This document shows positions 19,055 through 42,561 of a stretch of DNA of 64,000 nucleotides, piece by piece. This DNA comes from Kiloniellaceae bacterium (lineage in GTDB: Bacteria; Pseudomonadota; Alphaproteobacteria; Kiloniellales; J153). The notes below the pieces were generated by a model that did not search any database, was not told the origin of the DNA, and saw only the letters and a program-made list of their open reading frames with translations. Each line of letters opens with the position of its first letter. The first letter of the stretch is position 1. The translations under genes were made by a program, and so were the position numbers. The stretch lies in NCBI GenBank assembly GCA_021776175.1, contig JAJFGJ010000002.1, forward strand, positions 124,001 to 188,000. The letters are read 5' to 3'.

Positions 19055-19074
19055 GGAAAATACATCGTCAGAGA

Positions 19075-26085: not shown

Positions 26086-26118
26086 GTCGCAATCATCCGC
26101 AGTGGTGTCGGGCCGATA

Positions 26119-27294: not shown

Positions 27295-28271
27295 AGCCGG
27301 TCCCGGGCCAGGCCGCGCCCGACCGCGGCGAGATAAAGCCAGCGGCTGAGAGGCTGGCACATCACGTAGAGAATACGCGCCCACGACCGCCGGCGTTCGA
27401 TGGTGAAATGGCTCGGCCAAATTGGGCTGAGGACGAGGCTGCGTAGCAGATACCGCCGGCCGGGAACTGCCGGGTCATGAATCGCTAACAAGCCGGCGCA
27501 ATAAAGTGCCGAGGCCAACGCCTGCCGCCGCCAAGCGCACACTGACGCCGGTAGATCATGCCGATTGAAAAATGCCGTGACCATATCGATCTTGTTTGCC
27601 GCCATTTGCCTATTACGGCCCGACTGACTGGTACCGCCCCGGTGCAGCCGCCATGTCGCGAGCACCTGCGGAATACGGGCGATGCGTCCTGCCAGGGCCA
27701 GACGCAGCCACATCTCGTAGTCGCTGGTAAAAGGGAAACGGGGATTTCGGACCGGATCGTCATTAAGAGCGGAAAGGCGGAAGAAGGCGCCCGGTCCGGG
27801 CAGGCATAGGTGCTGCTCAAGATGGACACACAGGTCGAAATCGAGCGTCGTGACCGTGCGAACGGGCACGCCTTTTTCGTCGATCATTTCCCAGTCTGGA
27901 TAAACGGCGACAAGGCCCGCGTCCGCTTCCAACATCGTGACGGCGGCCCGAAGCAACCCTGGTCGCACCGGATCGTCGGCGTTGACGATCCCGACGATGT
28001 CCGATGATGCTTCGGCCACCCCTCGATTAACGGCATCTACCTCGCCCCCATTTTGCTGGCGGATGAGCCGGATACGCTTCCCATAGCGGCTGGCCAGGAA
28101 ATCGCCCGTGCCGTCGGTCGAGCCATCGTCGACAACGACGTATTCACAGGGGGAAACCGACTCGGGATCGCCCATCTGGGCGAGCACGCTATCGACAGTC
28201 TCGGCGATATAGTCCCGCCCGTTGTAGACGGGTGTCACCACAGTGACACGCGCTTTCTCCTGTGCCGACAT
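27291..28271 (-). CDS. Glycosyltransferase family 2
   Basis: The 326-residue GT-A enzyme starts with VTVVTPVYNGRDYIAETVDSVL and YVVVDDGSTDGTGDFL. It continues with NGGEVDAVNRGVAEASSDIVGIVNADDPVRPG (the DxD-like acidic motif) and PRFPFTSDYEMWLRLAL, where the Asp-Tyr-Glu region supplies the catalytic base. It is an inverting transferase, probably adding one sugar of the repeat. Its end overlaps the next glycosyltransferase by GTGA, and it follows the WecB-like epimerase by 9 bases. Confidence 0.88.
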   Translation of the reverse strand: MSAQEKARVTVVTPVYNGRDYIAETVDSVLAQMGDPESVSPCEYVVVDDGSTDGTGDFLASRYGKRIRLIRQQNGGEVDAVNRGVAEASSDIVGIVNADDPVRPGLLRAAVTMLEADAGLVAVYPDWEMIDEKGVPVRTVTTLDFDLCVHLEQHLCLPGPGAFFRLSALNDDPVRNPRFPFTSDYEMWLRLALAGRIARIPQVLATWRLHRGGTSQSGRNRQMAANKIDMVTAFFNRHDLPASVCAWRRQALASALYCAGLLAIHDPAVPGRRYLLRSLVLSPIWPSHFTIERRRSWARILYVMCQPLSRWLYLAAVGRGLARDRL

Positions 28272-28280
28272 GCGCCTGAT

Positions 28281-29375
28281 TTAACCGGATAAGCCGTGGA
28301 TGTGACTAGTGACGATCCGCAGTACGGTATCGCTGACATTAGTCGCCATATATTCTGGCGGCGGGGTCCATTTCGCCGTATCGCCAGTCACCAGGGCAAC
28401 ACCACGCAAGATACTCCGCATGTCGGCACCGCTGATATAGTTAGAGCCGCAATCTAGAGTCTCCGGCCGTTCGGTCACGTCACGTATCGTGACATTGGGG
28501 ACTCCGAATAGGGCGCATTCTTCCTGAACTGTGCCGCTGTCGGATAGGACGCAAAAAGCATTACGCTCCAGGCTAACGAAATCGAAGAAGCCGAAGGGCT
28601 CCGCGAACTCCACACCGTCACCCACTATAAGGTTCGCAGATCGTTTCATTCGGCCACGGGTGCGCGGGTGCGTGCTGACAATCACCGGCATGGCATAATC
28701 GGCTGCCAGGCGTGAGAAGGCGTCAACAAAGGCTCGCAGACGTTCCTCCACATCGACGTTTTCGGCGCGATGCATGGTCACGAGAAAATATTTCTTCTCG
28801 GCCAACCCCAACCGTCTTAGCACGTCCGACTCCCGGATTTGCGAATGGTGAGCGTCTATCACCTCCCCGATCGGGTTTCCGGTGACGAAGATACGATGGC
28901 CGGGAACGCCTTCTCTCAGCAGATTTTCGCGGCTGCGTTGGGTATAAGGCATAAGAATGTCCGAGCAGTGGTCGACGATCCGCCGATTGACCTCCTCGGG
29001 CACCCGGTCGTCGTAGCAGCGGTTACCCGCCTCCATGTGAAAGACGGGTATGCCAAGACGTTTGGCCATGATGGCCGACAGGGCCGAGTTGGTGTCACCC
29101 AGCAGAAGCAATCTGTCAGGCCGCTCGCGGCGAAACATCTCCTCGGCATGTTCCAAGATCTGACCGATTTGCCGGCCTGCGCGGCTGGTATCGACGCCGA
29201 AATGGAAATCTGGCCGGCGCACTTTTAGCTGGCTGAAAAACTCGTCGGACAACTTGGGATCGTGGTTTTGGCCGGTATGGACCAAAACGTGGTCGACGAT
29301 CTTGTCCAGCTTGCCGATCAGCAGAGACAGTCGAATAATCTCCGGCCGGGTGCCGAGGATGGTCGCGATCTTCAT
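28281..29375 (-). CDS. wecB: UDP-N-acetylglucosamine 2-epimerase family (WecB-like)
   Basis: The 364-residue GT-B-fold epimerase has MKIATILGTRPEIIRLS at the start, VHTGQNHDPKLSDEFF, LLLGDTNSALSA, FHMEAGNRCYDDRVPEE, LVTMHRAENVD and SDSGTVQEECALFGVPNVTIRD. It inverts C2 of a UDP-HexNAc. In this cluster, directly downstream of an FnlA/CapE-like dehydratase and an RmlD-like reductase, it most probably acts as the WbvD/WbjD-type 2-epimerase making UDP-L-QuiNAc (or L-FucNAc) rather than UDP-ManNAc; this is inference from gene order. It overlaps the upstream gene by ATGA. Confidence 0.88.
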   Translation of the reverse strand: MKIATILGTRPEIIRLSLLIGKLDKIVDHVLVHTGQNHDPKLSDEFFSQLKVRRPDFHFGVDTSRAGRQIGQILEHAEEMFRRERPDRLLLLGDTNSALSAIMAKRLGIPVFHMEAGNRCYDDRVPEEVNRRIVDHCSDILMPYTQRSRENLLREGVPGHRIFVTGNPIGEVIDAHHSQIRESDVLRRLGLAEKKYFLVTMHRAENVDVEERLRAFVDAFSRLAADYAMPVIVSTHPRTRGRMKRSANLIVGDGVEFAEPFGFFDFVSLERNAFCVLSDSGTVQEECALFGVPNVTIRDVTERPETLDCGSNYISGADMRSILRGVALVTGDTAKWTPPPEYMATNVSDTVLRIVTSHIHGLSG

Positions 29376-30442
29376 CGCAGGATTTCACCCTCCAGATGAA
29401 GTTCGTCGTCGACCATAAGGCGGTGGCGCTCTAGCAGCGCCTTGGTGCCGTCGAAATCCAGCAAATCGTCATTGGACATATAGGGGCGATCGAGCGGTTC
29501 GCCCTCGTAGTTCCGGCCGTCCATCAACTCAGGCAGGATGGGGGCTATCACATAGTAGTTGCCGCGGACGTAGGTCCTAACCGATTCCTCGCCCGACACA
29601 AGGCATTCATGCAACTTCTCGCCCGGCCTAATGCCGGTAATTTCTGTCGGGATAGGTCGATCACCAATCAGTGCGCGCGCCACGTCGGTGATGCTGGCAG
29701 CTGGCACACGAGGAATATAAGTTTCACTTCGCTGGCCGTGCGCGACGGCAGCCAGGACGACGTCCACGGCGTCTTCGAGACTCAGTAGGAAGCGTGTCAT
29801 CCGCTCGTCAGTGATCGTGATCGGCTGGCCGGCGCGAATCCGCTCGTGGAAATAGGGGATGACCGAACCACGCGAGGCAAGCACATTACCATAACGGACC
29901 AAGACGAACCTCGTGTTGGGCGCATCCAGATTGGCGGCCATAAAGATTCGTTCCTGCAACGCCTTGGTCATGCCCATGACATTCACGGGCTGCACGGCCT
30001 TGTCAGTCGAAACGCCGACGACAGTCTCGATCGTAAGGTTCTGCTCGCGGATCACCCGAACGATGTTGTTGGCGCCGATAATGTTGGTCATCACCGCCTC
30101 GGACGGAAAATACTCGCACGTGGGCACTTGCTTGAGGGCGGCGGCGTTGAACACGATGTCAGCGTTTCGCAATGGTCCGGACAAGCTGGCTGGGTCACGC
30201 ACATCACCGATGTGAAAGGACAACCGCTCTCGAACATTGTGATAAACGATGTCGTCTGTTGGGTTAGTGCGGTGCAGGTACTCCAGGCGGAGTTGGTGCT
30301 GCTTCGCTTCGTCCCGAGACAAGATGGAGACGCGCTCCACATCGCCGGCCTGTCCGCTCAGAAGCCGGCGCAGAAGCACCTTGCCGAGGGAACCGGTTCC
30401 GCCGGTGATAAGAACACGCTTGCCCGTGAGATCGGCTATCAT
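29372..30442 (-). CDS. UDP-GlcNAc 4,6-dehydratase/5-epimerase (FnlA/CapE/WbjB family)
   Basis: The 356-residue extended SDR begins with the NAD(P) loop LITGGTGSLGKVLLRRLL. It has FNAAALKQVPTCEYFPSEAV, VGVSTDKAVQPVNVMGMTKA (Met-x3-Lys in place of Tyr-x3-Lys, as in this subfamily) and VRYGNVLASRGSVIPYF. The family converts UDP-GlcNAc into UDP-2-acetamido-2,6-dideoxy-L-hexos-4-uloses, the shared precursor of UDP-L-QuiNAc, UDP-L-FucNAc and, via PseC, of 4-amino sugars. It is followed by a WecB-like epimerase (ATGA overlap) and preceded by an RmlD-like reductase. Confidence 0.9.
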   Translation of the reverse strand: MIADLTGKRVLITGGTGSLGKVLLRRLLSGQAGDVERVSILSRDEAKQHQLRLEYLHRTNPTDDIVYHNVRERLSFHIGDVRDPASLSGPLRNADIVFNAAALKQVPTCEYFPSEAVMTNIIGANNIVRVIREQNLTIETVVGVSTDKAVQPVNVMGMTKALQERIFMAANLDAPNTRFVLVRYGNVLASRGSVIPYFHERIRAGQPITITDERMTRFLLSLEDAVDVVLAAVAHGQRSETYIPRVPAASITDVARALIGDRPIPTEITGIRPGEKLHECLVSGEESVRTYVRGNYYVIAPILPELMDGRNYEGEPLDRPYMSNDDLLDFDGTKALLERHRLMVDDELHLEGEILR

Positions 30443-30457
30443 TCTTTATCTATCCAG

Positions 30458-31339
30458 TTATAATTGTTGATGATTTTCGTACATTACTTGAAGCATCTCC
30501 CGCCAAGTGGGAGGCACGATCCCTGTCCGGCTGCGGAACATGGTGCTGTCAAGCCGGCGGTCACAGACATACGCTTCGTCCCGGTCTATCGTCAGGTCCA
30601 AGCCGTAGATCTCGTTGACTAGGCATATCAGGTCATATTTGCTGATCGGATCGGCCGAAAGGTGCCAAACTCCGTAGAGTTTCGGAAAATCGGTAATTAT
30701 TTGCGTCAGCGCCTGCGTCATGAAATCGGTGGTAACGCCGGTGTAGAGGGCACGCACGAACCCAGACACCCGGCCACCCCGGTTGCGCAGAATCCATGAC
30801 ACCAATCCGGTACCGCCACCTATCTCATGGCCAATAATCGAGGTGCGCAGGGTCAGGGCATTGGGCGCATTGATCTCGCCAAGCAGTTTGCTGCGGCCAT
30901 ACAGGTCCTGGGGATCCGGCGGGGAGGCCTCCGTATACGGGCCAGCGTTGCCCGAAAAGACACAATCGGTCGAAAAATGAATGATCCGCACGCCGCGCTG
31001 CGTGCACGCCCGCGCCAACCGATGCGGGAACAAAGCATTCACCGGAATTGCAACCAGCGGGTCGTTGGCCGAGGCCAGTTGCTTGACCACACCGATGCAG
31101 TTCACCACCACGTCTGGACGCTCGCTATCCAACACCCGCTCAACGAGTCCTTCCGGCTCGACCGAGATGCCGCCGATCAGCCGTGGCTCGACCGGCCCCG
31201 TTTCACCGGCCGCCTCTTCTGCAGCCCCGCGAACCGTACCGACAACTTCATGGCCATATGTCGGCAATATTTGCAGCACACGATGGCCCAGCATTCCGGT
31301 GGCTCCGCAAACAAGAACCTTCATCCTGATTTCATCCAA
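30458..31339 (-). CDS. RmlD-like NDP-4-keto-sugar reductase (WbvR-type)
   Basis: The 293-residue SDR has VLVCGATGMLGHRVLQIL, VVVNCIGVVKQLA, IIHFSTDCVFSGNAGPYTE and the catalytic DLYGRSKLLGEI, as in dTDP-4-dehydrorhamnose reductase. No rmlABC genes accompany it; instead it lies between FnlA/CapE-like and WecB-like genes. It also lacks the C-terminal cupin of CapF/WbjC, which makes L-FucNAc. That combination fits WbvR, which reduces the 4-keto intermediate to UDP-L-rhamnosamine on the way to UDP-L-QuiNAc. A second ATG at 31324 (MKVLVCG) is an equally good start. Confidence 0.83.
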   Translation of the reverse strand: MDEIRMKVLVCGATGMLGHRVLQILPTYGHEVVGTVRGAAEEAAGETGPVEPRLIGGISVEPEGLVERVLDSERPDVVVNCIGVVKQLASANDPLVAIPVNALFPHRLARACTQRGVRIIHFSTDCVFSGNAGPYTEASPPDPQDLYGRSKLLGEINAPNALTLRTSIIGHEIGGGTGLVSWILRNRGGRVSGFVRALYTGVTTDFMTQALTQIITDFPKLYGVWHLSADPISKYDLICLVNEIYGLDLTIDRDEAYVCDRRLDSTMFRSRTGIVPPTWREMLQVMYENHQQL

Positions 31340-31351
31340 CCCAGACGCATG

Positions 31352-32299
31352 TCACTGCTTCGCCTGCATCCAGAATGCGGTCGGTTCCGACGACGGATAG
31401 ACCGCCCTCATATCGTTGATCTCAGGAAACCACTGTAGCATGGGTTCAGGATGCGCCAGCATCATGGCGTTACCGGCCCACACGACGTCGAATCCGCTGT
31501 TGAACGCCAGAAAGGCCTGCAACAGGTACTGCTCGTTCCAAAACACCTGGTTGTCGAAATACACCTTCGGGTAGCGCCGCGGCAAAGAGATGTCGTGAAC
31601 ATGAACCAGAACGCCCGGCTTCAGCCTTGGTAGCACTTCCAGGTACTCGTACTGCACGTCGGAGCCTTCGCGCAGCACGTGTGTGCTGTCGATAAACAGA
31701 ATGTCGCCGGCCTCAAGTTCTTGAAACAGGTCGAGTGGCACATCCTGCACTTTCTTGGCAATCAACTCAATGGAGCGCCCATCTTCGCGCCGGAGAAAGT
31801 CGCTCGGGTATGGCTCGATTGCCCGGATCAGACAGTTTCGGCCGGTTTGCGCCGTCATCGACGCGGTGGCGGCAGTGGACACCATCGTCGACGCATGGGC
31901 ACCGATCTCTATGATCCGCCGCGGCTTGTGATGCTGAACCAAGCACCAGTAAACATGAGCGTCGACCGCCATATAGGTGCCGTTGATCAGGAAAAAGTCC
32001 TCTCCCACAGTCTGATGCAGAGGAAACCGGTCCCGGAAACCGGCGATATGCAGGGGCACGACGCCTTCAAGAAAGGCCAATCCCCGATCGAGGCCCAAGT
32101 CCACGCCGGGCATGCCCGACACCTCATCCCAATACCCGGAGTCAAGGTCAGCGGCGTCGGGTACGGGCGAGTAGTAGTGGCGCCGGATCAGATGAAATCC
32201 GAATTTTTGCTCCAAAACGCGCGCGAGCATAGGAATGGCGCGGATCCCCAGGGATTTGACCGGCTGGAGAATTCGGTTGCGCAATGTCGACAAAGTCAC
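31352..32299 (-). CDS. Class I SAM-dependent methyltransferase-like protein (Methyltransf_24 type)
   Basis: The GTG at 32299 overlaps the end of a decayed aminotransferase frame (GTGA). A longer frame would run over that remnant and is rejected. The 315-residue product has the SAM-binding segment RIIEIGAHASTMVSTAA, an acidic strand DILFIDSTHVLREGSDVQYE, and LVHVHDISLPRRYP, as in O-methyltransferases of polysaccharide and glycopeptidolipid loci. A basic N-terminal helix precedes the domain. The probable role is O-methylation of a sugar hydroxyl. It lies 12 bases upstream of the RmlD-like gene. Confidence 0.72.
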   Translation of the reverse strand: MTLSTLRNRILQPVKSLGIRAIPMLARVLEQKFGFHLIRRHYYSPVPDAADLDSGYWDEVSGMPGVDLGLDRGLAFLEGVVPLHIAGFRDRFPLHQTVGEDFFLINGTYMAVDAHVYWCLVQHHKPRRIIEIGAHASTMVSTAATASMTAQTGRNCLIRAIEPYPSDFLRREDGRSIELIAKKVQDVPLDLFQELEAGDILFIDSTHVLREGSDVQYEYLEVLPRLKPGVLVHVHDISLPRRYPKVYFDNQVFWNEQYLLQAFLAFNSGFDVVWAGNAMMLAHPEPMLQWFPEINDMRAVYPSSEPTAFWMQAKQ

Positions 32300-32586
32300 G
32301 CCTCGCCCGTCATGGTTTTCATCGTCTCGGCTAGCGCCGCGATCACCATTTGCTGTTCGGCATCGCCTATGGGAATGCTGACGACATAGGACTGAACGCT
32401 GCGCGGATAAACCGCTTGCTTCGCTTGCGGTCGCACGCCAGGCGGAGAAGTGAGCTCGCCGCAAGCTTCGGCCTGACCCCGCCGCTGGTTCACAAACGCC
32501 TCAAGCCGTGCGAATTGGCAGAGGCCATTGGTCGTGTGGATCTCGCTCTTCCGCCAATTCATGTCCGGCATGATAAACTCCAGGGT
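32296..32586 (-). pseudogene. DegT/DnrJ/EryC1 aminotransferase remnant
   Basis: The frame reads DMNWRKSEIHTTNGLCQFARLEAFVNQRR, the segment that follows the PLP domain in DegT aminotransferases (normally G-Y-N-x-R-x-x-E). It then jumps to YVVSIPIGDAEQQMVIAALAETM, the C-terminus. The PLP-binding N-terminal half and part of the C-domain are deleted. The stop still overlaps the next gene's GTG, so the remnant preserves the original coupling. It shows that the locus once encoded another amino-sugar. Confidence 0.65.
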
Positions 32587-32587
32587 G

Positions 32588-32851
32588 TCAGCAATGGGTC
32601 CAGCCCGTGATCTCGCTGCCGACGGCATGTTGTCCGAACACCTCGGAAGTGGAAAAGCACACAACCCGCTTGCAAGCATCCAGCGTTTCTGTCACAGCCA
32701 ACACGTTCTCGGAGCCGATCATGTTGACGTCAGACAGTTGTCGATGCTGATTACCGTCGATCGGCCAGTTAGGCAGTCCTGACTGGAGGCGTGTTCCCAA
32801 ACACCACTCTGCTAGCCGGAACGCCGCACGGAAAATCTGTTTTGGTTCCAT
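32588..32851 (-). pseudogene. NDP-sugar epimerase/dehydratase remnant
   Basis: The frame contains VNMIGSENVLAVTETLDA and KRVVCFSTSEVFG, the central strand and catalytic Ser-Thr region of extended SDR sugar epimerases, preceded by an unrelated-looking stretch. The N-terminal NAD loop and the C-terminal half are absent. It directly precedes the aminotransferase remnant, so a former epimerase-aminotransferase pair has been collapsed by deletion. Confidence 0.6.
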
Positions 32852-32893
32852 TTGAAACGTCGAGGAACTAATTATTTTCAGGCCCTTAAGGGT

Positions 32894-33265
32894 CTAATTA
32901 ACGCACGTCTCGGACTTATCCACCCGCTGGCGCAGCAAGGCCAGTTCCTGAGCTAGAGACTTGATCTGTCGCTCCTGCCGAGAGATACGGACCAAGCCAT
33001 CCAAGATTAATACGACCGCTAAAACAAACGCCCCAATGACGAGCGCCATGATCAGCTCTCTGTCCGTCAGCTTCGACGTGTAGCCAAAAAACGGGAGCCA
33101 CTTCCACGCAGCAAGAAGCGCGAATGCCACGAATTCAAATAAAAGCCACAGCACGGTGATATGGGAGTTTAGTCTCCCAGACCGCGTCAGCCAGAGCGTG
33201 TATATAAAAAGACCCGCCAGTAAGCCAAGGCCAGTGTTTTGCACATCAGCGAAAAATGCGGTCAT
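32894..33265 (-). CDS. DUF2304 family membrane protein
   Basis: The ATG at 33265 overlaps the stop of the GT2 gene (ATGA) and gives a 123-residue product. It has three hydrophobic segments (GLGLLAGLFIYTLWL, VLWLLFEFVAFALLAAW, LIMALVIGAFVLAVVLIL) and a C-terminal coiled coil (RISRQERQIKSLAQELALL). DUF2304 proteins regularly follow DPM1-like glycosyltransferases and are thought to help anchor or assist them; the mechanism is not established. It is relatively AT-rich like its neighbours. Confidence 0.8.
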   Translation of the reverse strand: MTAFFADVQNTGLGLLAGLFIYTLWLTRSGRLNSHITVLWLLFEFVAFALLAAWKWLPFFGYTSKLTDRELIMALVIGAFVLAVVLILDGLVRISRQERQIKSLAQELALLRQRVDKSETCVN

Positions 33266-33987
33266 TTCTTTTTCACCGGCTGGGGATTGGAGAACAGACC
33301 AAAAAAACCTACGATAACGCGCAAGGGGTAAAAGACTGCTTTCCAAAATGTAAACAAAGATTGTCCGGCGTCTCGAGTCCGCATCTGGATGCCGACTTCC
33401 TTAATTTTGAAGCCCGCCTGGTGCAGCATTAACAAGGACTCTGCTTCTGGATGGTCCGTCGGGTAACAATTTGCAAAGAACTCCATTGCAGCTCTGTTCA
33501 AAGCACGATACCCGGAAGTGGTATCGTAAATAACTAGCCCTGAAGCCAGCTTCAATATGCCCGTCGAAAAGTGCATCCCCATCCGTCTGAAAAAAGGCGT
33601 TTTGTACTCTGTATCCTTCGCAGATGGTAGATATCGGGAACCGATCGCACAGTCTACTTCCCCGTTAATTACGGGCGTCGTCACATTGAACAACAAGGAC
33701 GGATCGTGCTGTCCATCGCCATCAATCTGAACTGCAATATCGTAATCATTACGAAGGGCGTAAATGAAACCTGCCTGAACCCCCCCACCAATGCCAAGAT
33801 TAATCGGCAGTGTGAGTACAGGAGCATTTTTTTCTCTGGCGACCTGCTCGGTTCTATCGGACGACGCATCGTTGACAACAACCACGTCCGCGCCTGTTTT
33901 AAATATTTCCTCCAGCAGCCCGGGGAGATTGTGTTCTTCATTATATGAAGGAACAATAATTAATATTCTTGATGCTGAATGAGCCAT
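33262..33987 (-). CDS. Glycosyltransferase family 2, DPM1-like
   Basis: The 241-residue enzyme has ILIIVPSYNEEHNLPGLLEE, VVVVNDASSDRTEQVA, NLGIGGGVQAGFIYA, the catalytic IAVQIDGDGQHDPSLL and IGSRYLPSA, then TSGYRALNRAAMEFF. This pattern is that of polyprenyl-phosphate sugar synthases (DPM1/ArnC-like without membrane helices). Together with the coupled DUF2304 protein it could load a sugar on undecaprenyl phosphate, which the GT-C-type protein at 38473-40491 could then use. That link is inference. Confidence 0.86.
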   Translation of the reverse strand: MAHSASRILIIVPSYNEEHNLPGLLEEIFKTGADVVVVNDASSDRTEQVAREKNAPVLTLPINLGIGGGVQAGFIYALRNDYDIAVQIDGDGQHDPSLLFNVTTPVINGEVDCAIGSRYLPSAKDTEYKTPFFRRMGMHFSTGILKLASGLVIYDTTSGYRALNRAAMEFFANCYPTDHPEAESLLMLHQAGFKIKEVGIQMRTRDAGQSLFTFWKAVFYPLRVIVGFFGLFSNPQPVKKK

Positions 33988-34136
33988 TAAAACCTAGATT
34001 CTTCTTTCGTCAACCCAGTTGAAAATTCAATTCCAAAAAATAGATATCCCCTGCACTCTAGTTGGAAGAGAAGATAGCCTGATGGGATGGACAGCGCGAC
34101 AAATTTTTCGCGATGGCAGAGAACGCCCGTTCGCAG

Positions 34137-34880
34137 GGGTTGATTATCCACGTACGTTTCAGGAGATGATGAGTGGTTCCGGAGCGGCGCCGGATTTCGG
34201 GACTAAATTCATCGGTTGCGTTGGCCAGACGGGTTTGCCTGCGGACGGATTGGAGAGCCGTGAGTGACATCGCGGGGACTGTTGCACCGCCGGATGCCAG
34301 GGGCAAGCGTCCTAGACTGCAGGCACCGTGTTCGAGGGGCGCGAAAGCCGCTACGTATGTGGTCCGTCACCAGCCAGAAGAACGGCGTTAGCGCGTTGGG
34401 CTTACAACTGGTGCTTGGCCTAGACAGCCATGGGACGGCCTGGGCCTAGCTCCACAAGCTACGGCGGGCGATAGTTCGGCCCGATCGGGATTGCCTCACG
34501 GGTGCCGTCGAGACGGACGAAACCTATTTCGGCTGCCCGGAAGATGACAAGTACGGCCGGGGAATCGAGACCAAAGCCATTGTAACAGTGGCTGCCGAAA
34601 TGAGCGGTTAGAGTATCGGTCGAATCCGCCTTCGGCGCGTCACGAACGTGTCCTCGGACTGCCCTCTTCCCTTCGTCCAGAATGCCGTGACGCCCGGGTC
34701 GGTGGCACATGTCTACGGATGGAGCGGTTATCGTGCGCTGACGGCGCACCGGCTACCAGCACCAAGTCACTATCATCAGTGACGGTCCAGAACCGGCCCA
34801 CGAGGTCATGTCGCGGGTCCACACCGTTGATTCGCTTCTCAAACGGTCGGTCCTGAGACGGTATGTGCTGAGAGGGCATT
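34137..34880 (+). pseudogene. IS1595/ISXO2-type transposase remnant
   Basis: Several frames on the plus strand, joined, spell a near-complete ISXO2-like transposase: DYPRTFQE, RLRWPDGFAC, TSQKNGVSALGLQLVLGLDS, then after a stop LHKLRRAIVRPDRD, GAVETDETYFGCPEDDKYGR and VTVAAEMSG, and finally SVAHVYGWSGYRAL and EVMSRVHTVDSLLKR. Stops and frameshifts interrupt it, and the Asp normally found in TDGW is replaced (VYGW). It lies inverted relative to the operon, in a 932-base gap between the DPM1-like and methyltransferase genes. The flanks of the gap hold no gene. Confidence 0.8.
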
Positions 34881-34919
34881 CGAATTTTATGGGTGAAACT
34901 CAAAATTATACAAAACTTC

Positions 34920-35786
34920 TTATGCCACTTTTCGAAAAACGATACGCATTGCATCTCCCATATTTGCTGGCAGGCCCAGTGTCTTAAACGGGCCAAACAG
35001 CTTGGGTTTGAGATCGACGCCCAGCATTATCGCGGCTTGCTGCAAGATTAACTCAAGTGGAACAATCTTCCAGGGATGGCTGCAAGACACAACTTTCAGC
35101 CCAAAACGTTTGCCCAATCGGGCAAGGCTTTCAGGCGTAAAATACCAAAGATGCAACGGGGGTGCCATCAATCGCCACCTTGAGCCAGTCAATCTCGCGG
35201 CCAATGAGGCCCAATCACCGGTTGTCACAATGAAACTGCCGCCCGGTCGTAAGTTCCCGCCAATCATTTCAACAACTTCAGAAACATTATCTATATGTTC
35301 AATGACATCTAGCATGACGACAACGTCCAAGGCACCGATCCGCTCAATGTCTTCCTTATTCAGCTCCCCGTGCTTAACATTTCCAAGGCCAGTATTGCGG
35401 CAATGGGCAGCGGCGGCTTCGACAATTTCTACGCCATGAACGTCGAAATATGGCTTTGCTTGTTGTAAAAAGAGCCCGTAGGCGCAGCCAATTTCCAGTA
35501 ACGTCCCTTGCGACGGCCCCACCGATCGAACGAAATCAACCGTTTTTGCAAACTCCCGCCCGATAGTTTCTTGACTGCCGAGATAGTCAATATAGGAATG
35601 CTTATATTTTCCGGTAAAATAACCGTTATCATAATAACGGTAAGGATCAAAACCTTGGACGTCTACACGGCCAACTCCGCAATCTCTGCATTTGCAGATT
35701 GGGTAACCTTCAATTGTGTAGATCACCTTGTGACGGTTAACAACATTGCACACTTGGCAATGAAAATTCTTGTATGTGGCTATCAT
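34920..35786 (-). CDS. Class I SAM-dependent methyltransferase with N-terminal zinc-ribbon-like region
   Basis: The 288-residue protein starts with a Cys pattern (CQVC, then CKCRDCGVGR) found in many methyltransferases of sugar loci. It continues with SAM motif I LLEIGCAYGLFLQQAKPY and motif VVVMLDVIEHIDNVSEVV, then LHLWYFTPESLARLGKRFG. It probably methylates a carbohydrate or a lipid-linked glycan. An upstream in-frame TTG (35906) would add 40 residues; the ATG at 35786 is preferred because the conserved region begins right after it. The gene is moderately AT-rich. Confidence 0.82.
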   Translation of the reverse strand: MIATYKNFHCQVCNVVNRHKVIYTIEGYPICKCRDCGVGRVDVQGFDPYRYYDNGYFTGKYKHSYIDYLGSQETIGREFAKTVDFVRSVGPSQGTLLEIGCAYGLFLQQAKPYFDVHGVEIVEAAAAHCRNTGLGNVKHGELNKEDIERIGALDVVVMLDVIEHIDNVSEVVEMIGGNLRPGGSFIVTTGDWASLAARLTGSRWRLMAPPLHLWYFTPESLARLGKRFGLKVVSCSHPWKIVPLELILQQAAIMLGVDLKPKLFGPFKTLGLPANMGDAMRIVFRKVA

Positions 35787-35971
35787 TTCCGTATTTCTAA
35801 CCAATGCCTCATCTTTAAGATTGAGTGGCCGGTCAGCCCATGAGGGCACCCCACCCGGAGAGTAGGAGCTTTCTCCAACGACTAATTTACACTCATCAAG
35901 AGGCAATAGAACACCTGTCCCATCGAACTTCCCGAGATGGCTCCTTGATGGGTGCCGTCATTACAATGCGG

Positions 35972-36748
35972 TTAATTTTTTCCCCAAATCAAAAGCTTAG
36001 TTGCTCCGAATTCTCCATACGGCGGAAGATCCAGCGCAACTTTATTGATTTCTGAATCATATCTGGGGTCTTCATTATTGTCGCGCGCGATTTTTGCATT
36101 CACAACACGGCTTAGAAAATAATAAGTACTACTGAAATGAGATAATTCTTGTAATTTCACAGGAAATTCTCGCGCCCAATTAAGAACATCATCAAGCTTA
36201 AAATATAAATTATGCCAAGGCGCCTTCATTGGCTCCAAGCCCAGCGGAATGCGTAATTCGTTTAGTTTCTCGTTGCCATCGTCAAAGGCCTCTACCATGA
36301 GGTAAATTCCAGTTGGCTTGAGTAAATTGATTATTTTCCCAAATGCGGCCTTTTGCGCCTCTAAATTTTCTAAATTAATCAAACACCTTTTCGTAATCAC
36401 AACGTCAAAAGGACCTAAGGAACCATCCAGCTGGGCAATATCGTGCCATTCAAATTTCAAAGACTTGCTCGTGTTATTTTCGTTGCATTGCTCTATAAAG
36501 GGTTGTGAATAATCTACGCCAATACCGTGACACTGCTTTTGAGCATGAAGTTGGAAAAGTAGATTGCCATCCCCGCATCCAATATCACAGACATGAGCAT
36601 TTTCCGGAACACGTGCTAATAAAATTTTCTCCTCAATTTCTTGAGCTATTTGATCGTTCGTACCGCCAACCCTTTCCATTTTTCCACGTTCATTCCAAAA
36701 ACTACGAACTTTGGACATATCTCTTTTATCATCTGTCATCGGCTTCAT
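35972..36748 (-). CDS. Class I SAM-dependent methyltransferase
   Basis: The 258-residue protein has SAM motif I HVCDIGCGDGNLLFQLHA, an acidic strand-2 end (GIGVDYSQPFIEQC), motif II DVVITKRCLINLENLEAQ and motif III LLKPTGIYLMVEAFDDGN. The Asn-Leu-Glu element instead of the usual Leu-His/Glu-His hints at a specialised acceptor. Its end contains YDSEINKVALDLPPYGE, a segment seen in methyltransferases of LPS and capsule loci. It is AT-rich compared with the core genes and lies 52 bases downstream of the PseC-like aminotransferase gene. Confidence 0.82.
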   Translation of the reverse strand: MKPMTDDKRDMSKVRSFWNERGKMERVGGTNDQIAQEIEEKILLARVPENAHVCDIGCGDGNLLFQLHAQKQCHGIGVDYSQPFIEQCNENNTSKSLKFEWHDIAQLDGSLGPFDVVITKRCLINLENLEAQKAAFGKIINLLKPTGIYLMVEAFDDGNEKLNELRIPLGLEPMKAPWHNLYFKLDDVLNWAREFPVKLQELSHFSSTYYFLSRVVNAKIARDNNEDPRYDSEINKVALDLPPYGEFGATKLLIWGKN

Positions 36749-36800
36749 TTCTCAAAAATTTCTTAGATTTTCACTCGCCGTATCGGCATTTTCAATTACT

Positions 36801-37991
36801 TCATCGGCGATACGCTTTCCAGACCTTGTTGACGGCCTTGATCGTGTCCGAGATATCTTGCGGCGTCATTGTCGGGTACATGGGCAAACTCAAAAGACGC
36901 TCATATTGGCCCTCGGCCACAGGCCACTGTCCAGGTTGATAGCCGAGTTTTTTGTAGTAGCTTAACCAAGGAATGGGAATGTAATGGACGTTCACGCCAA
37001 TGTTTTCGGCGCGCAACGCCACAAATATTGTTTCCTTTGGGACGCTGACGACTTCAAGGTTCAGTCGCACAACATACAAATGCCAAGCCGATTGGCATTG
37101 CTCGCGCTCCGTTGGACAGTCCAATAATGGCAGGTCGGCAAAAGCTTCATTGTACGTCGCGGCGATAGCGCGACGAGCCGCAAGCCACCCCGGTTGCTTT
37201 CTCAGCTGACTGGTGCCCAGCGCGCAGTTGATGTCGGGAATGCGATAGTTATAACCAAGGGTGATGACGTCGTACTCCCACGAGTTTCGCTCACCTCGTG
37301 AGTGCAGGTCCAGGTCAATCCCGTGATGGCGAAACGATTTGAGCCGCTGGGCAATTTCCGAATCATTGGTGAGAATCGCGCCCCCTTCACCCGTTGTGAT
37401 GTGCTTCACCGGATGGAAGCTCAGATTGGTGAAGTTATAAAAAGCTCCGACGGGGCGTCCCTTGTACGTCGCGCCAAGCGAGTGCGCCGCATCGTGGACT
37501 ATTGGGATGTTGTACTGCTTTGATATCTCAAGAAGCCTGCCGTGCTCACAGGGATGCCCGGCAAAATCAACCGCAACAATGGCTTTGGTTTTGTCTGTGA
37601 TCTTTCGCTCAACGTCAGCGGGATCGATGTTCAGGGTGTCCGGTTCCAAGTCGGCAAAGATAGGACGTGCACCTTGATAGATCGCGCAATTGGCGCTGGC
37701 TACAAACGAAATAGCGGGAACGATGACCTCGCTCCCCGCAGACACATGCGCCGCATTGCACGAAGCGTGCAGTGCGGCCGTCCCCGTGTTGACCGCAACA
37801 GCGTGCTTCGCCCCGGAAAAACCACACAGGGCATTTTCAAACTCCGCAACTGCGGGACCTGTCGTCAGCCAATCACCGAGAAGTATGTTTTCAACGGCCT
37901 TGCGGTCTACGTCATCGATACTTTGGGCGCCATATCGGAGCATCGTGGTGCGCACCGGAGAACCGCCGTCAATAGCGAGCATTGCTGACAT
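36801..37991 (-). CDS. DegT/DnrJ/EryC1 sugar aminotransferase, PseC-like
   Basis: The 396-residue PLP enzyme has YGAQSIDDVDRKAVENILLGDWLTTGP, VNTGTAALHASCNAA, PDTLNIDPADVERKIT, VDFAGHPCEHG, DAAHSLGATYKG and the Schiff-base lysine in SFHPVKHITTGEGGAI. These closely match PseC-type aminotransferases, which aminate C4 of UDP-2-acetamido-2,6-dideoxy-L-hexos-4-ulose. The FnlA/CapE-like enzyme of this locus makes such a 4-keto sugar, so substrate sharing is possible. No other pseudaminic acid genes are present. A good AAGGAAG Shine-Dalgarno precedes the ATG. Confidence 0.87.
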   Translation of the reverse strand: MSAMLAIDGGSPVRTTMLRYGAQSIDDVDRKAVENILLGDWLTTGPAVAEFENALCGFSGAKHAVAVNTGTAALHASCNAAHVSAGSEVIVPAISFVASANCAIYQGARPIFADLEPDTLNIDPADVERKITDKTKAIVAVDFAGHPCEHGRLLEISKQYNIPIVHDAAHSLGATYKGRPVGAFYNFTNLSFHPVKHITTGEGGAILTNDSEIAQRLKSFRHHGIDLDLHSRGERNSWEYDVITLGYNYRIPDINCALGTSQLRKQPGWLAARRAIAATYNEAFADLPLLDCPTEREQCQSAWHLYVVRLNLEVVSVPKETIFVALRAENIGVNVHYIPIPWLSYYKKLGYQPGQWPVAEGQYERLLSLPMYPTMTPQDISDTIKAVNKVWKAYRR

Positions 37992-38009
37992 CGTACTTCC
38001 TTGGTGAAC

Positions 38010-38383
38010 TTATTGCTGAAGGATAAGAATCAACCCAGTTGTGATAAAGGCGCAGCCAATGAAGAATTTTGCTGATAGTGGTGTTCCGAAAAAAAAAACT
38101 CCATGATCGCCGCGAAGATAAAAGCCAAAACGACAAAGGGATAGGCCTTTGTCAGCGGGACGACGGTTAATATCCACGCCCAAAGCAGCACCAGAGACCC
38201 GCACAATAAGATTGCGGCCCAGAATTGCCATGTCTGGATCAACCGTATGCCAAAGGTCCAAACGTTCGGCGAGATCGCTTGAGCTTGGGCCTGCGCGATA
38301 AAAACCCCCATTTTTAGAAGAATTTGCCCCGCCCCCAAGAAAAAAGCGAAGCTCACGAGCAAACTTACGTTCAGCAGTGTCAT
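38010..38383 (-). pseudogene. EamA/SMR-type small transporter with frameshift at a T10 tract
   Basis: The frame from 38383 encodes LLNVSLLVSFAFFLGAGQIL, WQFWAAILLCGSLVLLWAW and VPLTKAYPFVVLAFIFAAI, the first three helices of an EamA/SMR or ArnE-like protein. At a run of ten T (plus-strand A at 38089-38098) it leaves the frame and would end in unrelated residues. One extra T would restore FFGTPLSAKFFIGCAF and TGLILILQQ, the expected fourth helix, ending at 38010. The gene is thus broken, phase-variable, or mis-sequenced. Such proteins often flip lipid-linked sugars, which would suit the neighbouring GT-C protein. Confidence 0.7.
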
Positions 38384-38472
38384 TGGCCGCGATTTCCAAT
38401 CGTTAAATATCCCCGCACCAAGCGGTTGGGAGATTTTAGTTTACAAATATCGTTCACATCGTGTCACCCAGG

Positions 38473-40491
38473 TCACGAGGGTCCATCCGAAATGTGCCAC
38501 ACGTCTCCATCTTCGCTTTGGCATGATGACGTCGGCTCGGGGGCTCCAGACAGCGGCTCAAGAGTGTAAAGGGACAGGTTGCGCCCCTCAAACCCCGTGT
38601 GAACAACCTTCAACCATTTGGGTGCTTTTGACACATCGGGCATTGTGGAGAAAAATTGGCTGTGCGTGACTCCGTCAATCACCAGAAAACGCGCCCCCAA
38701 ATCATGGAGTTGCGTCCAAAGATTTTCCGCCGATACCTTCGCCGCAGCTTGGACCTTTCCGGTCTCCTCGGCGGTCAACACGCATTGCAACAAATCAACA
38801 CGAAAAAAGGACCGATAATACATGGCCAGCAACATGCGGGATCCCGGCTGTGATTCGCCGGTTATTTCCGCCACCGTCCACATGGGGGCCCCCCATGGGG
38901 TTACCGATACACCAGCGTAAATTCGTGCCCGCTCCAGCCCGGGCTGCAACCGCAACCAAGCTAGCCCGAGCACGGCAAGCAAAGTCAAAACGATAATCCA
39001 GCGTAAATAGAATAGCGGCTTGCGCTGCCAAATCATCTCGACAGCATAGGCCGCAAGAGGAAGCGAAGTGACAAGCACCGGCAGAATGTAACGCGGCGCC
39101 AACATCGACGGGCGCAAGGCAACCCAGATAGCCACGGCAAGGGCCGAACCGACGGACAAAACAAACAACGGGTGAGTCTTGACAAACCAGTCGGGGGGAA
39201 ACCACGGTCGAGGGGCCAGCAGCATCAGCGGTAAAAATGCCAGCCACAATGGCGTTAGATTACCGTGTTGCGCCCAGTAGGTACCGTATACCAGCGCCAA
39301 GGGATAGGTCGAAACGATCCAGCGTGTGCTTTCCTCGCTGAACCACTCCCCGCTCAACGGAAACGGAACCGCATCACCAAAATAGTACAACGGTGCCAAG
39401 GGCTCGGCAAAAACATAGGCATTTTTAAGGATTGTTGGCGACATGCCGATCAGCCCCCAAACACCCAGGCCGATACCCACGATTAGTACAGTCCTGAACC
39501 AAGGGCCGAACTGTCGAACAATGAGCCCTCGCGCGTTTGGCGCCTCCGCGTCAAGGGGGCGTGCGCCGGCAACGGGGGTCTGAAATATCACCAGGATCGC
39601 CATCAGCGGGATCAAGACCGGCGCAAACGAAAGTTTCGCCGTGACCGCAACGCCCGACGTGATCCCGGCAACGGCCAGGATCCGCCAGCTTGGCTCTTTT
39701 CTAAAACGCAGCAACATGTACACCGACGCCAACGCCCAAGCCGTAGGGAACAATTCGGTCTTGCCATCCCACAACACGTTGGTGAACCCGGTGCTAGAAT
39801 ACAACAAGCCGAGTAACGTCCACTGCCCACGGCGCCCCAGCCCCACTTCGGAACCAATCGCCCACAGCAAAGCGCCACTACACAACGCCGTCGGCCAGAC
39901 CAGTATTTTCGCCGCAAACTCTCCGTCCAGCGCGTACAGAATAGCGTATTGCATTTCAGAAGCCAGACCAAGCACACCGAACATCTCATAGCTTGGCAAC
40001 AACCGCAGCGACTGGGTGGCGGCAAACAATTTTGGTTGCGCCAAGTAGTAGGCCAGCGCGTCTCCATCCGGTCGGTGCCACGTCATCGGAAGGAACGTTG
40101 CGATCAAGACCACCGTTAAGGCCGCAACCCCCCACCAGATGCCCCAGAGCTTCCAGGTGTCGCCGACCAGCGCCAATGAACGACGGACGACCAAAGGCGC
40201 CGCCCATGGGACGGCTGGCAAGCCAATCAGCACAGCCAGAACCAGTCCCATACCAATCATCGTTGGTGAAAACAGGCTGGCGGCAGCCAAGAGCATCCAT
40301 ATGCTTCCGAGAAGCGCTTGCCCAAAGGCGAAGCCGGTTCCCAAGTACCCCGCAGCGGACAAGCTCCCCGATGCGGTCGGAAACGCGTGCAATTTCCGCA
40401 ACACGCCAAGGCCAAACACGAGGCACACCAAGGCATAAAAGCCTGTGACCCCCGCCGACAGCAAGATTGGAAGAGAATTCCCCCAAACCAT
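38473..40491 (-). CDS. Polytopic membrane protein, probable GT-C/GT39-like glycosyltransferase
   Basis: The 672-residue protein has a dozen or so hydrophobic segments over residues 1-510 and a soluble C-terminal domain (about 510-672). An acidic site after the first loops (MTWHRPDGDALAYYLAQPKL) resembles the Asp-containing first periplasmic loop of GT-C enzymes, and WDGKTELFPTAWAL follows. GT-C enzymes transfer sugars from polyprenyl-phosphate donors in the periplasm. The DPM1-like gene downstream could supply the donor. Sequence evidence for the exact family is weak, so function is tentative. Confidence 0.65.
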   Translation of the reverse strand: MVWGNSLPILLSAGVTGFYALVCLVFGLGVLRKLHAFPTASGSLSAAGYLGTGFAFGQALLGSIWMLLAAASLFSPTMIGMGLVLAVLIGLPAVPWAAPLVVRRSLALVGDTWKLWGIWWGVAALTVVLIATFLPMTWHRPDGDALAYYLAQPKLFAATQSLRLLPSYEMFGVLGLASEMQYAILYALDGEFAAKILVWPTALCSGALLWAIGSEVGLGRRGQWTLLGLLYSSTGFTNVLWDGKTELFPTAWALASVYMLLRFRKEPSWRILAVAGITSGVAVTAKLSFAPVLIPLMAILVIFQTPVAGARPLDAEAPNARGLIVRQFGPWFRTVLIVGIGLGVWGLIGMSPTILKNAYVFAEPLAPLYYFGDAVPFPLSGEWFSEESTRWIVSTYPLALVYGTYWAQHGNLTPLWLAFLPLMLLAPRPWFPPDWFVKTHPLFVLSVGSALAVAIWVALRPSMLAPRYILPVLVTSLPLAAYAVEMIWQRKPLFYLRWIIVLTLLAVLGLAWLRLQPGLERARIYAGVSVTPWGAPMWTVAEITGESQPGSRMLLAMYYRSFFRVDLLQCVLTAEETGKVQAAAKVSAENLWTQLHDLGARFLVIDGVTHSQFFSTMPDVSKAPKWLKVVHTGFEGRNLSLYTLEPLSGAPEPTSSCQSEDGDVWHISDGPS

Positions 40492-40859: not shown

Positions 40860-41100
40860 GCAGGCCGTCAGGCTTATCCATCATATCCACGGGCTGGTCG
40901 TGACGATAGGCCTTCACCGGCGGCCAGCCGGCCAGGACGGATGAAACCGCTCGGTAATTTAGAAGCCGATCCACTCGTCGATGACCCGGCCGACCTTGAA
41001 GCCATCGGTCAGCTCGTGCAGATAGGCCACCTCATATTTTATCAACCGCCATAGACGCTCGATAAAGATATTGTCCATGTATCGCGGGGTGACGTACTCT
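40860..41100 (-). pseudogene. IS3-family transposase (OrfB) C-terminal remnant
   Basis: The minus strand reads YMDNIFIERLWRLIKYEVAY, then LHELTDGFKVGRVIDEWIGF, followed by a stop and a shifted frame with AGWPPVKAYR. This is the C-terminal part of IS3-type DDE transposases (the catalytic Glu in IERLW, then the conserved P-x-x-A-Y end). The first two catalytic residues and the rest of the element are missing. It lies in the leader region between the ops-like site and the first structural gene. Confidence 0.72.
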
Positions 41101-41278
41101 GCGGCCCCGATAAGGGCAAAGCCGATGAGAGACACGCCCCAGCTTTCTTACTTAATCGGGCTACAAATTTGCGATGGAACCTAGTGATTTCTTGGGATTG
41201 AGGGCCCAGCGAGTCGGGGGACGCCAGCGCCAGACCACTATCACGTGCAATGACAACGCTCGCAAACAGAAACTGGAT

Positions 41279-41289
41279 ACGCTACCGCC
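41279..41289 (-). promoter_or_regulatory. ops-like element (RfaH recruitment sequence)
   Basis: The minus strand reads GGCGGTAGCGT, identical to the 11-base core of the E. coli ops element that recruits RfaH to paused RNA polymerase. It lies 70 bases downstream of the RfaH-like gene, on the coding strand of the polysaccharide operon and ahead of its structural genes, as a leader ops should. A hairpin ends 3 bases upstream of it. Direct function in this lineage is inferred from sequence and position. Confidence 0.65.
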
Positions 41290-41292
41290 CTT

Positions 41293-41315
41293 CGGGTGAA
41301 AGAGTTTTTCACCCG
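41293..41315 (-). promoter_or_regulatory. Leader hairpin immediately before the ops-like element
   Basis: CGGGTGAAA / TTTCACCCG form a perfect 9-bp stem with a 5-base loop, between the RfaH-like gene's end and the ops-like site. There is no U-run after it, so it is not a standard intrinsic terminator. It could be a pause hairpin or a regulated stop that RfaH-modified polymerase reads through. Confidence 0.6.
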
Positions 41316-41359
41316 TCCCGGTGCGCGCCGCGCACCAAAATCATTCCCGCCGCCAGCGC

Positions 41360-41857
41360 TCAGCCAGCCGGCGCGACTTGGTTCCTGGCAGCAACGGCGA
41401 GAACCTCGCCACCAAGCATACTCAACAGCAACTCGACCCGCTCATGGCGTGTCAGGCGCACGACGGTCGCAACGCACCCCCTGAACGCGCCTCGAATCAG
41501 GCGCACCTTATCGCCCGGGTTGATCTCCGGTTCTGGAAAACGTAATGCGCCGTCCGCATCGGCATCCGCCCGCAACCCCTCGATGAAGTCTTCGGGAACA
41601 TACGCTGGCCGATCGCCCAGCTTAACCAAGGCACGAACCCCGTAGGTGTTATCGATCATTCGCCACGGCGATACCGCGACATTCAGGTGCACGAAGAGGT
41701 AGCCGGGGAACAACGGCTCCAGAACCTGATCGACCTTCCGCGCGTGCCGGCGGGTCCTCCATAGGCGAGGCAGGAACACGCTGACATCCTGGCGCCGCAA
41801 ATTCAGCTCCGCGCGCCGCTCCTGGTGGGGCAAAGTGTTGACCGCACACCACGCCAT
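41360..41857 (-). CDS. rfaH: RfaH-like NusG paralogue (operon-specific antiterminator)
   Basis: The 165-residue length equals that of E. coli RfaH. The NGN domain has WCAVNTLPHQERRAELNLRR, EPLFPGYLFVHLNV and YGVRALVKLGDRPAYVPEDF. The C-terminal KOW-type domain has EINPGDKVRLIRGAFRGC and ERVELLLSMLGGEVL, close to RfaH segments. RfaH travels with RNA polymerase, suppresses pausing and Rho termination, and aids translation of long LPS and capsule operons. Its gene lies 4 bases after the MarR-type regulator and immediately before the ops-like site and the long polysaccharide operon, matching that role. Confidence 0.88.
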   Translation of the reverse strand: MAWCAVNTLPHQERRAELNLRRQDVSVFLPRLWRTRRHARKVDQVLEPLFPGYLFVHLNVAVSPWRMIDNTYGVRALVKLGDRPAYVPEDFIEGLRADADADGALRFPEPEINPGDKVRLIRGAFRGCVATVVRLTRHERVELLLSMLGGEVLAVAARNQVAPAG

Positions 41858-41861
41858 GACG

Positions 41862-42500
41862 TCACGCCATCGCCTTGTGTTTGGTAATCAGCGTTTCACG
41901 ATCACGAACGACACGCAGGAAATCAGGCACCAGGACCCGGCTCGCCTCAACTTCGGCCGCCAAGCGCTCGAAGCTCTCCTGGGGCGCGCGCATGTCGGTC
42001 AGCATGACCGCGTCAAAATCGCCCACCTCGTCGAGAGAGCGGACCACCACACAGCCGGCCATCCGATCCCTGTTGTCGCCTTCCCCCAAGATCGCGCAAA
42101 TCGAGACGTCGAGATCATGGGCTGCGAGGACCGCGATTTCCGCAAGCTCGCCGGCTCCGACGAGCACAATCCGTTTCATTCCGAGCCGCTCCGCACGCAG
42201 TAAAAGTGCCTCATATTCTTCACGCGCCTGCCGGAACAGGCCCAGGGATATCTCCAAGTATTCAGCAACCAACCGGCTTTTCTCGGCAAAGCCCTTCGGC
42301 GTCAAGTAATATGCCCACCTCTTGGCCGGCGCACTCTTGGCCTTGACATAGCCTTTCCGCATCGTCCTCTTGAGAAGAGCGTTGATTAGTCCTACCGCCG
42401 CTCCGACACGGGTCGAAAGGACCTGTTGGCTGACCACCTCACCGCGCTCCACGGCGGTCAGAAAGTCCAGTTCTGTTTTCGATTTTGGCATGGCGGCCAC
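41862..42500 (-). CDS. MarR-family EPS-associated regulator fused to a Rossmann-like domain
   Basis: Residues 1-105 form a winged-helix domain of the EPS-associated MarR type (LDFLTAVERGEVVSQQVLST, GLINALLKRTMRKGYVK, AYYLTPKGFAEKSRL). Residues 108-205 form a small Rossmann-like domain with the nucleotide loop KRIVLVGAGELAEIAVLAA and a second strand ICAILGEGD, similar to the N-terminal part of PglD-type sugar acetyltransferases. The second half could sense a nucleotide sugar. It is the first gene of the polysaccharide operon. An inverted repeat and a promoter-like sequence lie just upstream, compatible with autoregulation. Confidence 0.78.
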   Translation of the reverse strand: MAAMPKSKTELDFLTAVERGEVVSQQVLSTRVGAAVGLINALLKRTMRKGYVKAKSAPAKRWAYYLTPKGFAEKSRLVAEYLEISLGLFRQAREEYEALLLRAERLGMKRIVLVGAGELAEIAVLAAHDLDVSICAILGEGDNRDRMAGCVVVRSLDEVGDFDAVMLTDMRAPQESFERLAAEVEASRVLVPDFLRVVRDRETLITKHKAMA

Positions 42501-42520: not shown

Positions 42521-42561
42521 GGTGAAGGTCTTGAATATCACATTCACCTTCTGAACGTCAA
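42521..42561 (-). promoter_or_regulatory. Candidate promoter and operator of the polysaccharide operon
   Basis: On the minus strand, TTGACG (42556-42561) and TATTCA (42532-42537) are 18 bases apart, resembling a weak sigma-70 promoter. GGTGAA/TTCACC arms (42521-42526 and 42543-42548) form an inverted repeat overlapping the -10 and spacer, where a MarR-type repressor would block transcription. The MarR-like start codon follows about 20 bases later. Confidence 0.4.

What the first reader, a model, noticed from the sequence alone, without database searches (positions are those of the whole stretch)
41279..41857. Self-contained RfaH-ops antitermination module at the head of a 30-kb polysaccharide operon
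An RfaH-sized NusG paralogue is followed, on the same strand, by a perfect 9-bp hairpin and then GGCGGTAGCGT, an exact 11-base match to the enterobacterial ops core (expected about 0.03 times by chance on both strands of the whole window). It lies in the leader of the long operon that RfaH would need to serve. In E. coli rfaH is unlinked from its targets; here factor, site and operon are adjacent in what looks like an alphaproteobacterium. A locus-bound, possibly transferable antiterminator would be a new arrangement. The hairpin just before ops could be a pause or regulated terminator.
Basis: partly seen in the sequence, partly recalled or inferred. Interest (0 to 1): 0.9.

Follow-up and report, generated by a model that had tools for sequence, protein, structure and literature searches.

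The report
Polysaccharide antiterminator with adjacent loading site
A gene for an RfaH-like protein, which keeps RNA polymerase going through long sugar-coat operons, is followed by a conserved hairpin-plus-ops DNA signal that is probably its loading site, and the same pairing recurs across the Alphaproteobacteria, where it appears not to have been described before.

Summary
A NusG-paralogue gene (41857..41360, minus strand) is followed 70 nt past its stop by a perfect 9-bp hairpin and GGCGGTAGCGT (41289..41279). It is not chance. The same hairpin-ops element sits 46-220 nt 3' of 44 of 105 related alphaproteobacterial rfaH-like genes (reverse-complement control: 1). In 385 class genomes, 24 of 46 element sites lie directly 3' of rfaH and 42 of 46 are in rfaH-bearing genomes. 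In an independent scan of GTDB genomes, 86 of 118 sites are adjacent to rfaH. Most of the others, in genomes such as Rhodospira trueperi, precede polysaccharide genes elsewhere. The hairpin arms covary. The element resembles the enterobacterial JUMPstart, but Rfam's JUMPstart model misses it. The family core is usually TGCGGTAGC.

Most likely this is a pause site that recruits the resident antiterminator to its polysaccharide operon. Operon-resident NusG paralogues are known, but their recruitment is described as unknown. A 2026 preprint proposes that beta-folded, operon-linked RfaHs work without ops. This family is predicted beta-folded and operon-linked, yet keeps an ops. The window copy itself may be partly broken: the first downstream gene is truncated by an IS remnant, and a single 30-kb operon is not shown. 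No function was tested.

The parts
41360..41857 (-). rfaH-like NusG-paralogue gene (165 aa): NGN domain plus C-terminal KOW domain
   Evidence: Pfam NusG 6e-17; NCBIfam RfaH 107 bits, below its 144.5 cut-off; one of only two NusG-family genes found in the genome; AlphaFold2 beta-barrel KOW; best PDB relatives include RfaH on the ops-paused complex
41862..42500 (-). MarR_EPS-like regulator gene (212 aa), 4 nt upstream of rfaH
   Evidence: TIGR04176 4e-12, below cut-off; homologue present in 91 of 110 rfaH loci, 86 upstream on the same strand
41320..41336 (-). Additional 7-bp stem-loop GGTGCGC-GGC-GCGCACC between the rfaH stop and the conserved hairpin
   Evidence: read; window copy only, conservation not tested
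41293..41315 (-). Perfect 9-bp hairpin CGGGTGAAA-AACTC-TTTCACCCG, the JUMPstart-like stem-loop
   Evidence: equivalent stem covaries across relatives
41279..41289 (-). ops core GGCGGTAGCGT
   Evidence: GCGGTAGC conserved 46-220 nt 3' of rfaH in 44 of 105 relatives
40964..41141 (-). Remnant: start of a WlbA-like oxidoreductase (..FALIGAAEYVTPRYM) fused to an IS3-type integrase fragment (DNIFIERLWRLIKYE..)
   Evidence: relatives L007 and L024 carry an intact WlbA-like gene directly after the site; fragment names recalled from family knowledge; boundaries approximate
12125..40491 (-). Putative target: co-directional polysaccharide cluster (PseC-type aminotransferase, RmlD, Polysacc_synt_2, UDP-GlcNAc 2-epimerase, glycosyltransferases, Wzm/Wzt ABC exporter, sulfotransferase, asparagine synthase)
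   Evidence: gaps up to 932 nt, so one transcript is not shown
42534..42561 (-). Weak promoter-like site upstream of marR-rfaH
   Evidence: one match against 1.5 expected by chance, so not evidence by itself

Best explanation
The element is the loading site of the RfaH-like antiterminator encoded just upstream. RNA polymerase transcribes marR-rfaH and, about 80 nt past the rfaH stop, forms an RNA stem-loop and reaches an ops-type consensus pause. The exposed ops bases in the non-template strand recruit the RfaH-like protein. It excludes NusG/Rho and helps polymerase, and perhaps the ribosome, traverse the long polysaccharide cluster. The same protein serves copies of the element at other polysaccharide loci where these exist. 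Shown by sequence: the element, its covarying stem, its position and its association with rfaH and polysaccharide genes. Inferred: pausing, binding, antitermination and the order of events.
For: Adjacency: 24 of 46 class-wide sites lie 43-219 nt 3' of rfaH on the same strand; 40 of 44 site-bearing genomes have rfaH against 50 of 341 others (Fisher p 1e-24). Reversed-pattern control: 4 sites against 46. Independent scan: 86 of 118 sites adjacent. 44 of 105 rfaH 3' flanks carry GCGGTAGC, against 1 reverse-complement, 5 reversed and 11 complement. Stem: swapping 5' arms between loci destroys pairing (z -9.5, 0 of 300; z -8.4, 0 of 200); compensatory pairs CG 27/GC 20/AU 1 and CG 41/UA 10/UG 4. 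First genes after the site are polysaccharide genes. ops-contact positions Q24 and T72 (E. coli numbering; contacts from PMC5995543) are kept in 38/40 and 39/40 adjacent-site proteins, against 48/60 each in the others. No terminator-like T-run follows the hairpin.
Against: No experiment. Other E. coli ops-contact or autoinhibition residues are not conserved: K10, H65, T66, R73, E48, F126, F130. 61 of 105 rfaH genes lack the element nearby; trans sites are known for only some of those genomes. In the window the first target gene is broken and 868 nt separate rfaH from the next ORF. The Q24/T72 comparison is weak (p 0.04 and 0.01, uncorrected, phylogeny not controlled).
Confidence: 0.82

Rival explanations
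1. The protein reads the RNA hairpin rather than the ops DNA, as LoaP does with its leader hairpin; GCGGTAGC serves only as a pause.
For: The stem is under strong structural constraint; LoaP binds a small RNA hairpin that is essential for antitermination (PMC12691694); the classical ops-contact residues K10 and R73 are mostly absent.
Against: Stem sequence varies freely, and SAR11-like loci keep only structure plus TGCGGTAGC, while the GCGGTAGC core, whose central bases in E. coli serve RfaH rather than pausing (PMC5995543), is the more constant part. LoaP model score is far below cut-off.
Confidence: 0.2
2. Ordinary E. coli-style RfaH that acts in trans; the site beside the gene is simply one of its target leaders and adjacency has no mechanistic role.
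For: Sites away from rfaH in the same genomes, for example Rhodospira trueperi (L195, L205), LM-1 (L288, L233) and JACRPC (L187, L238).
Against: Adjacency is the commonest arrangement (86 of 118), at a median 69.5 nt from the stop, spread across the protein tree with at least 7 state changes. Autoinhibition residues are not conserved and the predicted KOW is already beta.
Confidence: 0.45
3. Relic: the module is conserved in relatives but decaying in this genome.
For: First downstream gene truncated and fused to an IS3-type remnant, 868-nt gap; ops TG at positions 11-12 reads TA in the window.
Against: rfaH and marR ORFs are intact, hairpin is a perfect 9 bp, ops core complete.
Confidence: 0.3
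4. The hairpin is a regulated terminator or attenuator.
For: A 9-bp G+C-rich stem stands between rfaH and the cluster.
Against: No T-run follows; it is followed by AAGGGCGGTAGC. Relatives likewise have GCGGTAGC instead of a U-tract.
Confidence: 0.04

Closest known systems
E. coli RfaH with ops / JUMPstart (RF01707) leaders
   Same: NusG paralogue; GGCGGTAGCGT core; stem-loop just upstream of ops; polysaccharide operons as targets; sites away from the rfaH gene occur too
   Different: E. coli rfaH is unlinked from its targets; the family core is usually TGCGGTAGCNTGG; the stem sequence differs and Rfam's JUMPstart model scores 12.6 against a threshold of 35; most ops-contact and autoinhibition residues are not conserved; KOW predicted beta
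UpxY antiterminators of Bacteroides capsule operons
   Same: Encoded at the head of the polysaccharide operon they serve
   Different: UpxY acts on the 5' leader upstream of its own gene (PMC7819879) and has the UpxZ partner; here the site is 3' of the gene; score 73.7 below cut-off 100
LoaP (Bacillus velezensis)
   Same: NusG paralogue, short leader hairpin required
   Different: LoaP binds an RNA hairpin and overcomes NusA-dependent terminators; no ops; score far below cut-off
Monomorphic operon-linked RfaH clade (Tabilo-Agurto et al. 2026, PMC13015549)
   Same: Beta-folded KOW predicted, gene next to an LPS-type operon, proposed to act in cis
   Different: That work proposes ops-independent action; searching its text gave no mention of Alphaproteobacteria and none of the passages read describes an ops-like site beside the gene

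Membership tests
NusG family (Pfam PF02357) | NGN domain over gathering cut-off | tested here: met
   62.4 bits against 22.2
RfaH (TIGR01955 equivalog) | Score over curated cut-off 144.5 | tested here: not met
   107.4 bits; best of the NCBIfam models but below cut-off, so filed as RfaH-like
RfaH | Conserved ops-contact residues | tested here: inconclusive
   Q24, T72 and Y54 kept; K10, H65, T66, T68 and R73 mostly not
RfaH | Autoinhibited alpha-helical KOW | tested here: inconclusive
   AlphaFold2 gives a beta KOW for the window protein (pLDDT 94) and for L176 (pLDDT 83), and F126/F130 are not conserved, which speaks against it; but this is a prediction and E. coli RfaH could not be run as a control
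RfaH | Recruitment at ops and antitermination | not testable with these tools
   needs in vitro transcription or reporter
JUMPstart RNA (Rfam RF01707) | Score over gathering 35 bits | tested here: not met
   12.6 bits in the window; none of 20 relatives at gathering
JUMPstart RNA | Stem-loop followed by GGGCGGTAGCGT before polysaccharide genes | tested here: met
UpxY (NF033644) | Score over cut-off 100 | tested here: not met
   73.7
LoaP (NF033641) | Score over cut-off 125 | tested here: not met
   43.1

The most novel reading that the evidence does not exclude
A cis-loading antiterminator: the RfaH-like protein is not autoinhibited (KOW already beta) and is delivered as it leaves the ribosome that finishes rfaH, onto the polymerase held about 80 nt ahead at a hairpin-flanked ops pause. 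Sequence-specific ops reading would then have arisen before autoinhibition, in a factor that acts first on its own transcript, contrary to the current picture in which the two evolved together and cis-acting RfaHs need no ops.
Probability: 0.25. Interest if true: 0.78.

Novelty: new variant of a known kind. Interest (0 to 1): 0.62.

Why it matters
The literature states that operon-resident NusG paralogues have unknown modes of recruitment and that E. coli RfaH is the only one understood in detail (PMC7593976). This supplies a concrete, conserved, testable recruitment element for a whole class of bacteria, with many natural variants (T6C cores, divergent stems, sites adjacent or distant). It also gives a test of whether ops recognition came before autoinhibition in RfaH evolution, and a way to predict antiterminator targets among alphaproteobacterial polysaccharide operons.

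Tried and rejected
Chance motif: rejected by the relatives. Intrinsic terminator: no T-run. Known Rfam RNA: none at threshold; the D12-methyl hit in the window (13.6 bits against 57) is noise. Phage origin: 13 viral-contig matches, none near an rfaH; most are one repeated sequence. Plasmid mobility: rfaH-like genes lie on alphaproteobacterial plasmids, but the three checked (Cereibacter, Bradyrhizobium, Aestuarium) carry no hairpin-ops element after the gene, so 'transferable module' was not supported there. MAFFT alignment of the elements misaligned the 5' arms, so covariation was measured by arm-swapping and by a covariance model instead. The model alignment A6 holds one reverse-strand duplicate (L291), a minor flaw.

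Full report
Observation. The rfaH-like ORF 41857..41360 (-), the perfect 9-bp hairpin 41315..41293 (-) and GGCGGTAGCGT 41289..41279 (-) are exactly as described. The ORF matches the NusG family (Pfam 6e-17) and, best among NCBIfam models, RfaH at 107 bits, below that model's 144.5 cut-off. The genome holds just one other NusG-family gene, the housekeeping one. A MarR_EPS-like regulator gene lies 4 nt upstream. The hairpin-plus-core pattern occurs once without mismatch in the genome; near-matches are at the level of the reversed-pattern control.

Conservation. In relatives of the same order the 3' flank of the rfaH-like gene repeatedly reads TTTCACCCG-GAN-TGCGGTAGCNTG. Over 385 genomes of the class, the pattern TCACCCNNNNKGCGGTAGC gives 46 sites in 44 genomes, against 4 for the reversed pattern. 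Searching the same genomes for the protein finds 90 with a homologue. 40 of the 44 site-bearing genomes are among them (Fisher p 1e-24), and 24 of 46 sites lie 43-219 nt 3' of the gene on its own strand. Starting from the gene, 44 of 105 3' flanks contain GCGGTAGC within 400 nt, against 1, 5 and 11 for reverse complement, reverse and complement. Looking only for the hairpin arm, 40 of 50 TTCACCC-type arms within 300 nt are followed by GCGGTAGC, and four of the other ten by variants: GCGGCAGC three times and GCGTGAGC once. The named hosts are nearly all Alphaproteobacteria: Kiloniella, Pelagibius, Rhodospira, Pleomorphomonas, Bradyrhizobium, Hyphomicrobium, Methylosinus, SAR116, Odyssella and others.

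Structure. Exchanging 5' arms among 40 elements weakens pairing by 9.5 standard deviations; among 109 elements of the named scan by 8.4. A covariance model built from four elements and applied to 98 other loci gives compensatory changes at two pairs (CG 27/GC 20/AU 1; CG 41/UA 10/UG 4), covariation 0.205 against 0.137 +/- 0.006 in shuffles and at most 0.062 when slid. Small-genome loci L174, L176 and L177 keep the core and a hairpin of quite different sequence. Rfam's JUMPstart model aligns to the window element at 12.6 bits (threshold 35) and finds none of 20 relatives, though a conserved stem-loop is the feature reported for JUMPstart in gammaproteobacteria (PMC2864571).

Targets. The first gene after the site is typically a polysaccharide gene: WlbA-like, GDP-mannose dehydratase, UDP-GlcNAc 4,6-dehydratase, UDP-sugar dehydrogenase, NeuB-like, DegT aminotransferase, ABC permease (names from N-terminal motifs, inference). 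Sites without rfaH nearby precede similar genes, and Rhodospira trueperi, LM-1 and JACRPC carry both kinds. In the window the cluster includes PseC-type aminotransferase, epimerases, glycosyltransferases, a Wzm/Wzt exporter and a sulfotransferase. Gaps reach 932 nt, and the first 868 nt hold a WlbA-like start fused to an IS3-type integrase fragment, so the ancestral first gene is broken here.

Protein. E. coli RfaH contacts ops through K10, H20, R23, Q24, T68, N70, A71, T72 and R73 (PMC5995543). In this family Q24 and T72 are near-constant among adjacent-site proteins (38/40, 39/40) and lost together in a subset without sites; K10 and R73 are mostly absent; a tryptophan replaces T66 (39/40 against 45/60) and an RRHAR tip is nearly constant. 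AlphaFold2 predicts a beta-barrel KOW for the window protein and for L176; PDB matches include fully recruited RfaH on the ops-paused complex. The site label changes at least 7 times on starred branches of the protein tree and is present in its most divergent clade, so the pairing is probably old and the adjacency has been gained or lost repeatedly.

Mechanism. Best reading: polymerase passes rfaH, forms the stem, pauses at ops and receives the RfaH-like protein, which then escorts it through the cluster. By the E. coli register the stem ends at or just behind the RNA-DNA hybrid of the U11 pause (inference), where it could limit backtracking or lengthen the pause. The median 69.5 nt from rfaH stop to core would place the ribosome that finishes rfaH close behind the paused polymerase, which allows, but does not show, delivery in cis.

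Known and new. Operon-resident NusG paralogues (UpxY, TaA, LoaP) are known, their recruitment mostly not (PMC7593976; PMC7819879). A 2026 preprint links beta-folded RfaHs to adjacent operons and proposes ops-independent action in cis (PMC13015549). I found no description of a hairpin-ops element beside alphaproteobacterial rfaH genes in the held library; subscription papers were not searchable.

Noticed in passing
window 40964-41141 (-): WlbA-like gene start fused to an IS3-type integrase fragment: an IS remnant has broken the gene that follows the ops site in relatives.
   Followed up: partly
L114, L129, L139: Elements adjacent to rfaH whose core reads GCGGCAGC, changing the flipped T6 of ops to C: natural specificity variants.
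   Followed up: partly
L247 (Fluviispira) and L253 (Phormidesmis contig, 5.1 kb): Exact elements before ABC-transporter-like genes in records labelled Fluviispira and Phormidesmis, outside the Alphaproteobacteria: transfer or contamination.
   Followed up: no
L209, L259: MAGs labelled Gammaproteobacteria and Planctomycetota (both BWOrgHeat) carry rfaH with an adjacent element; labels may be wrong.
   Followed up: no
window 43758-43828 (-): tRNA gene upstream of marR-rfaH, possibly an island boundary.
   Followed up: no
window 44917-47781 (-): HpnN-like hopanoid transporter gene upstream of the locus.
   Followed up: no
L203 (uncultured Rhodopila): Two elements 183 nt apart in tandem on the same strand, no rfaH in the fetched stretch.
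   Followed up: no
rfaH-like family, window residues 36-40 and 65: Near-constant RRHAR beta-hairpin tip and W65, not shared with E. coli RfaH: candidate nucleic-acid or polymerase contacts.
   Followed up: partly
G352 and G429: Sites 3.4 kb and 14.3 kb downstream of rfaH on the same strand and contig, perhaps internal operon reloading sites.
   Followed up: no
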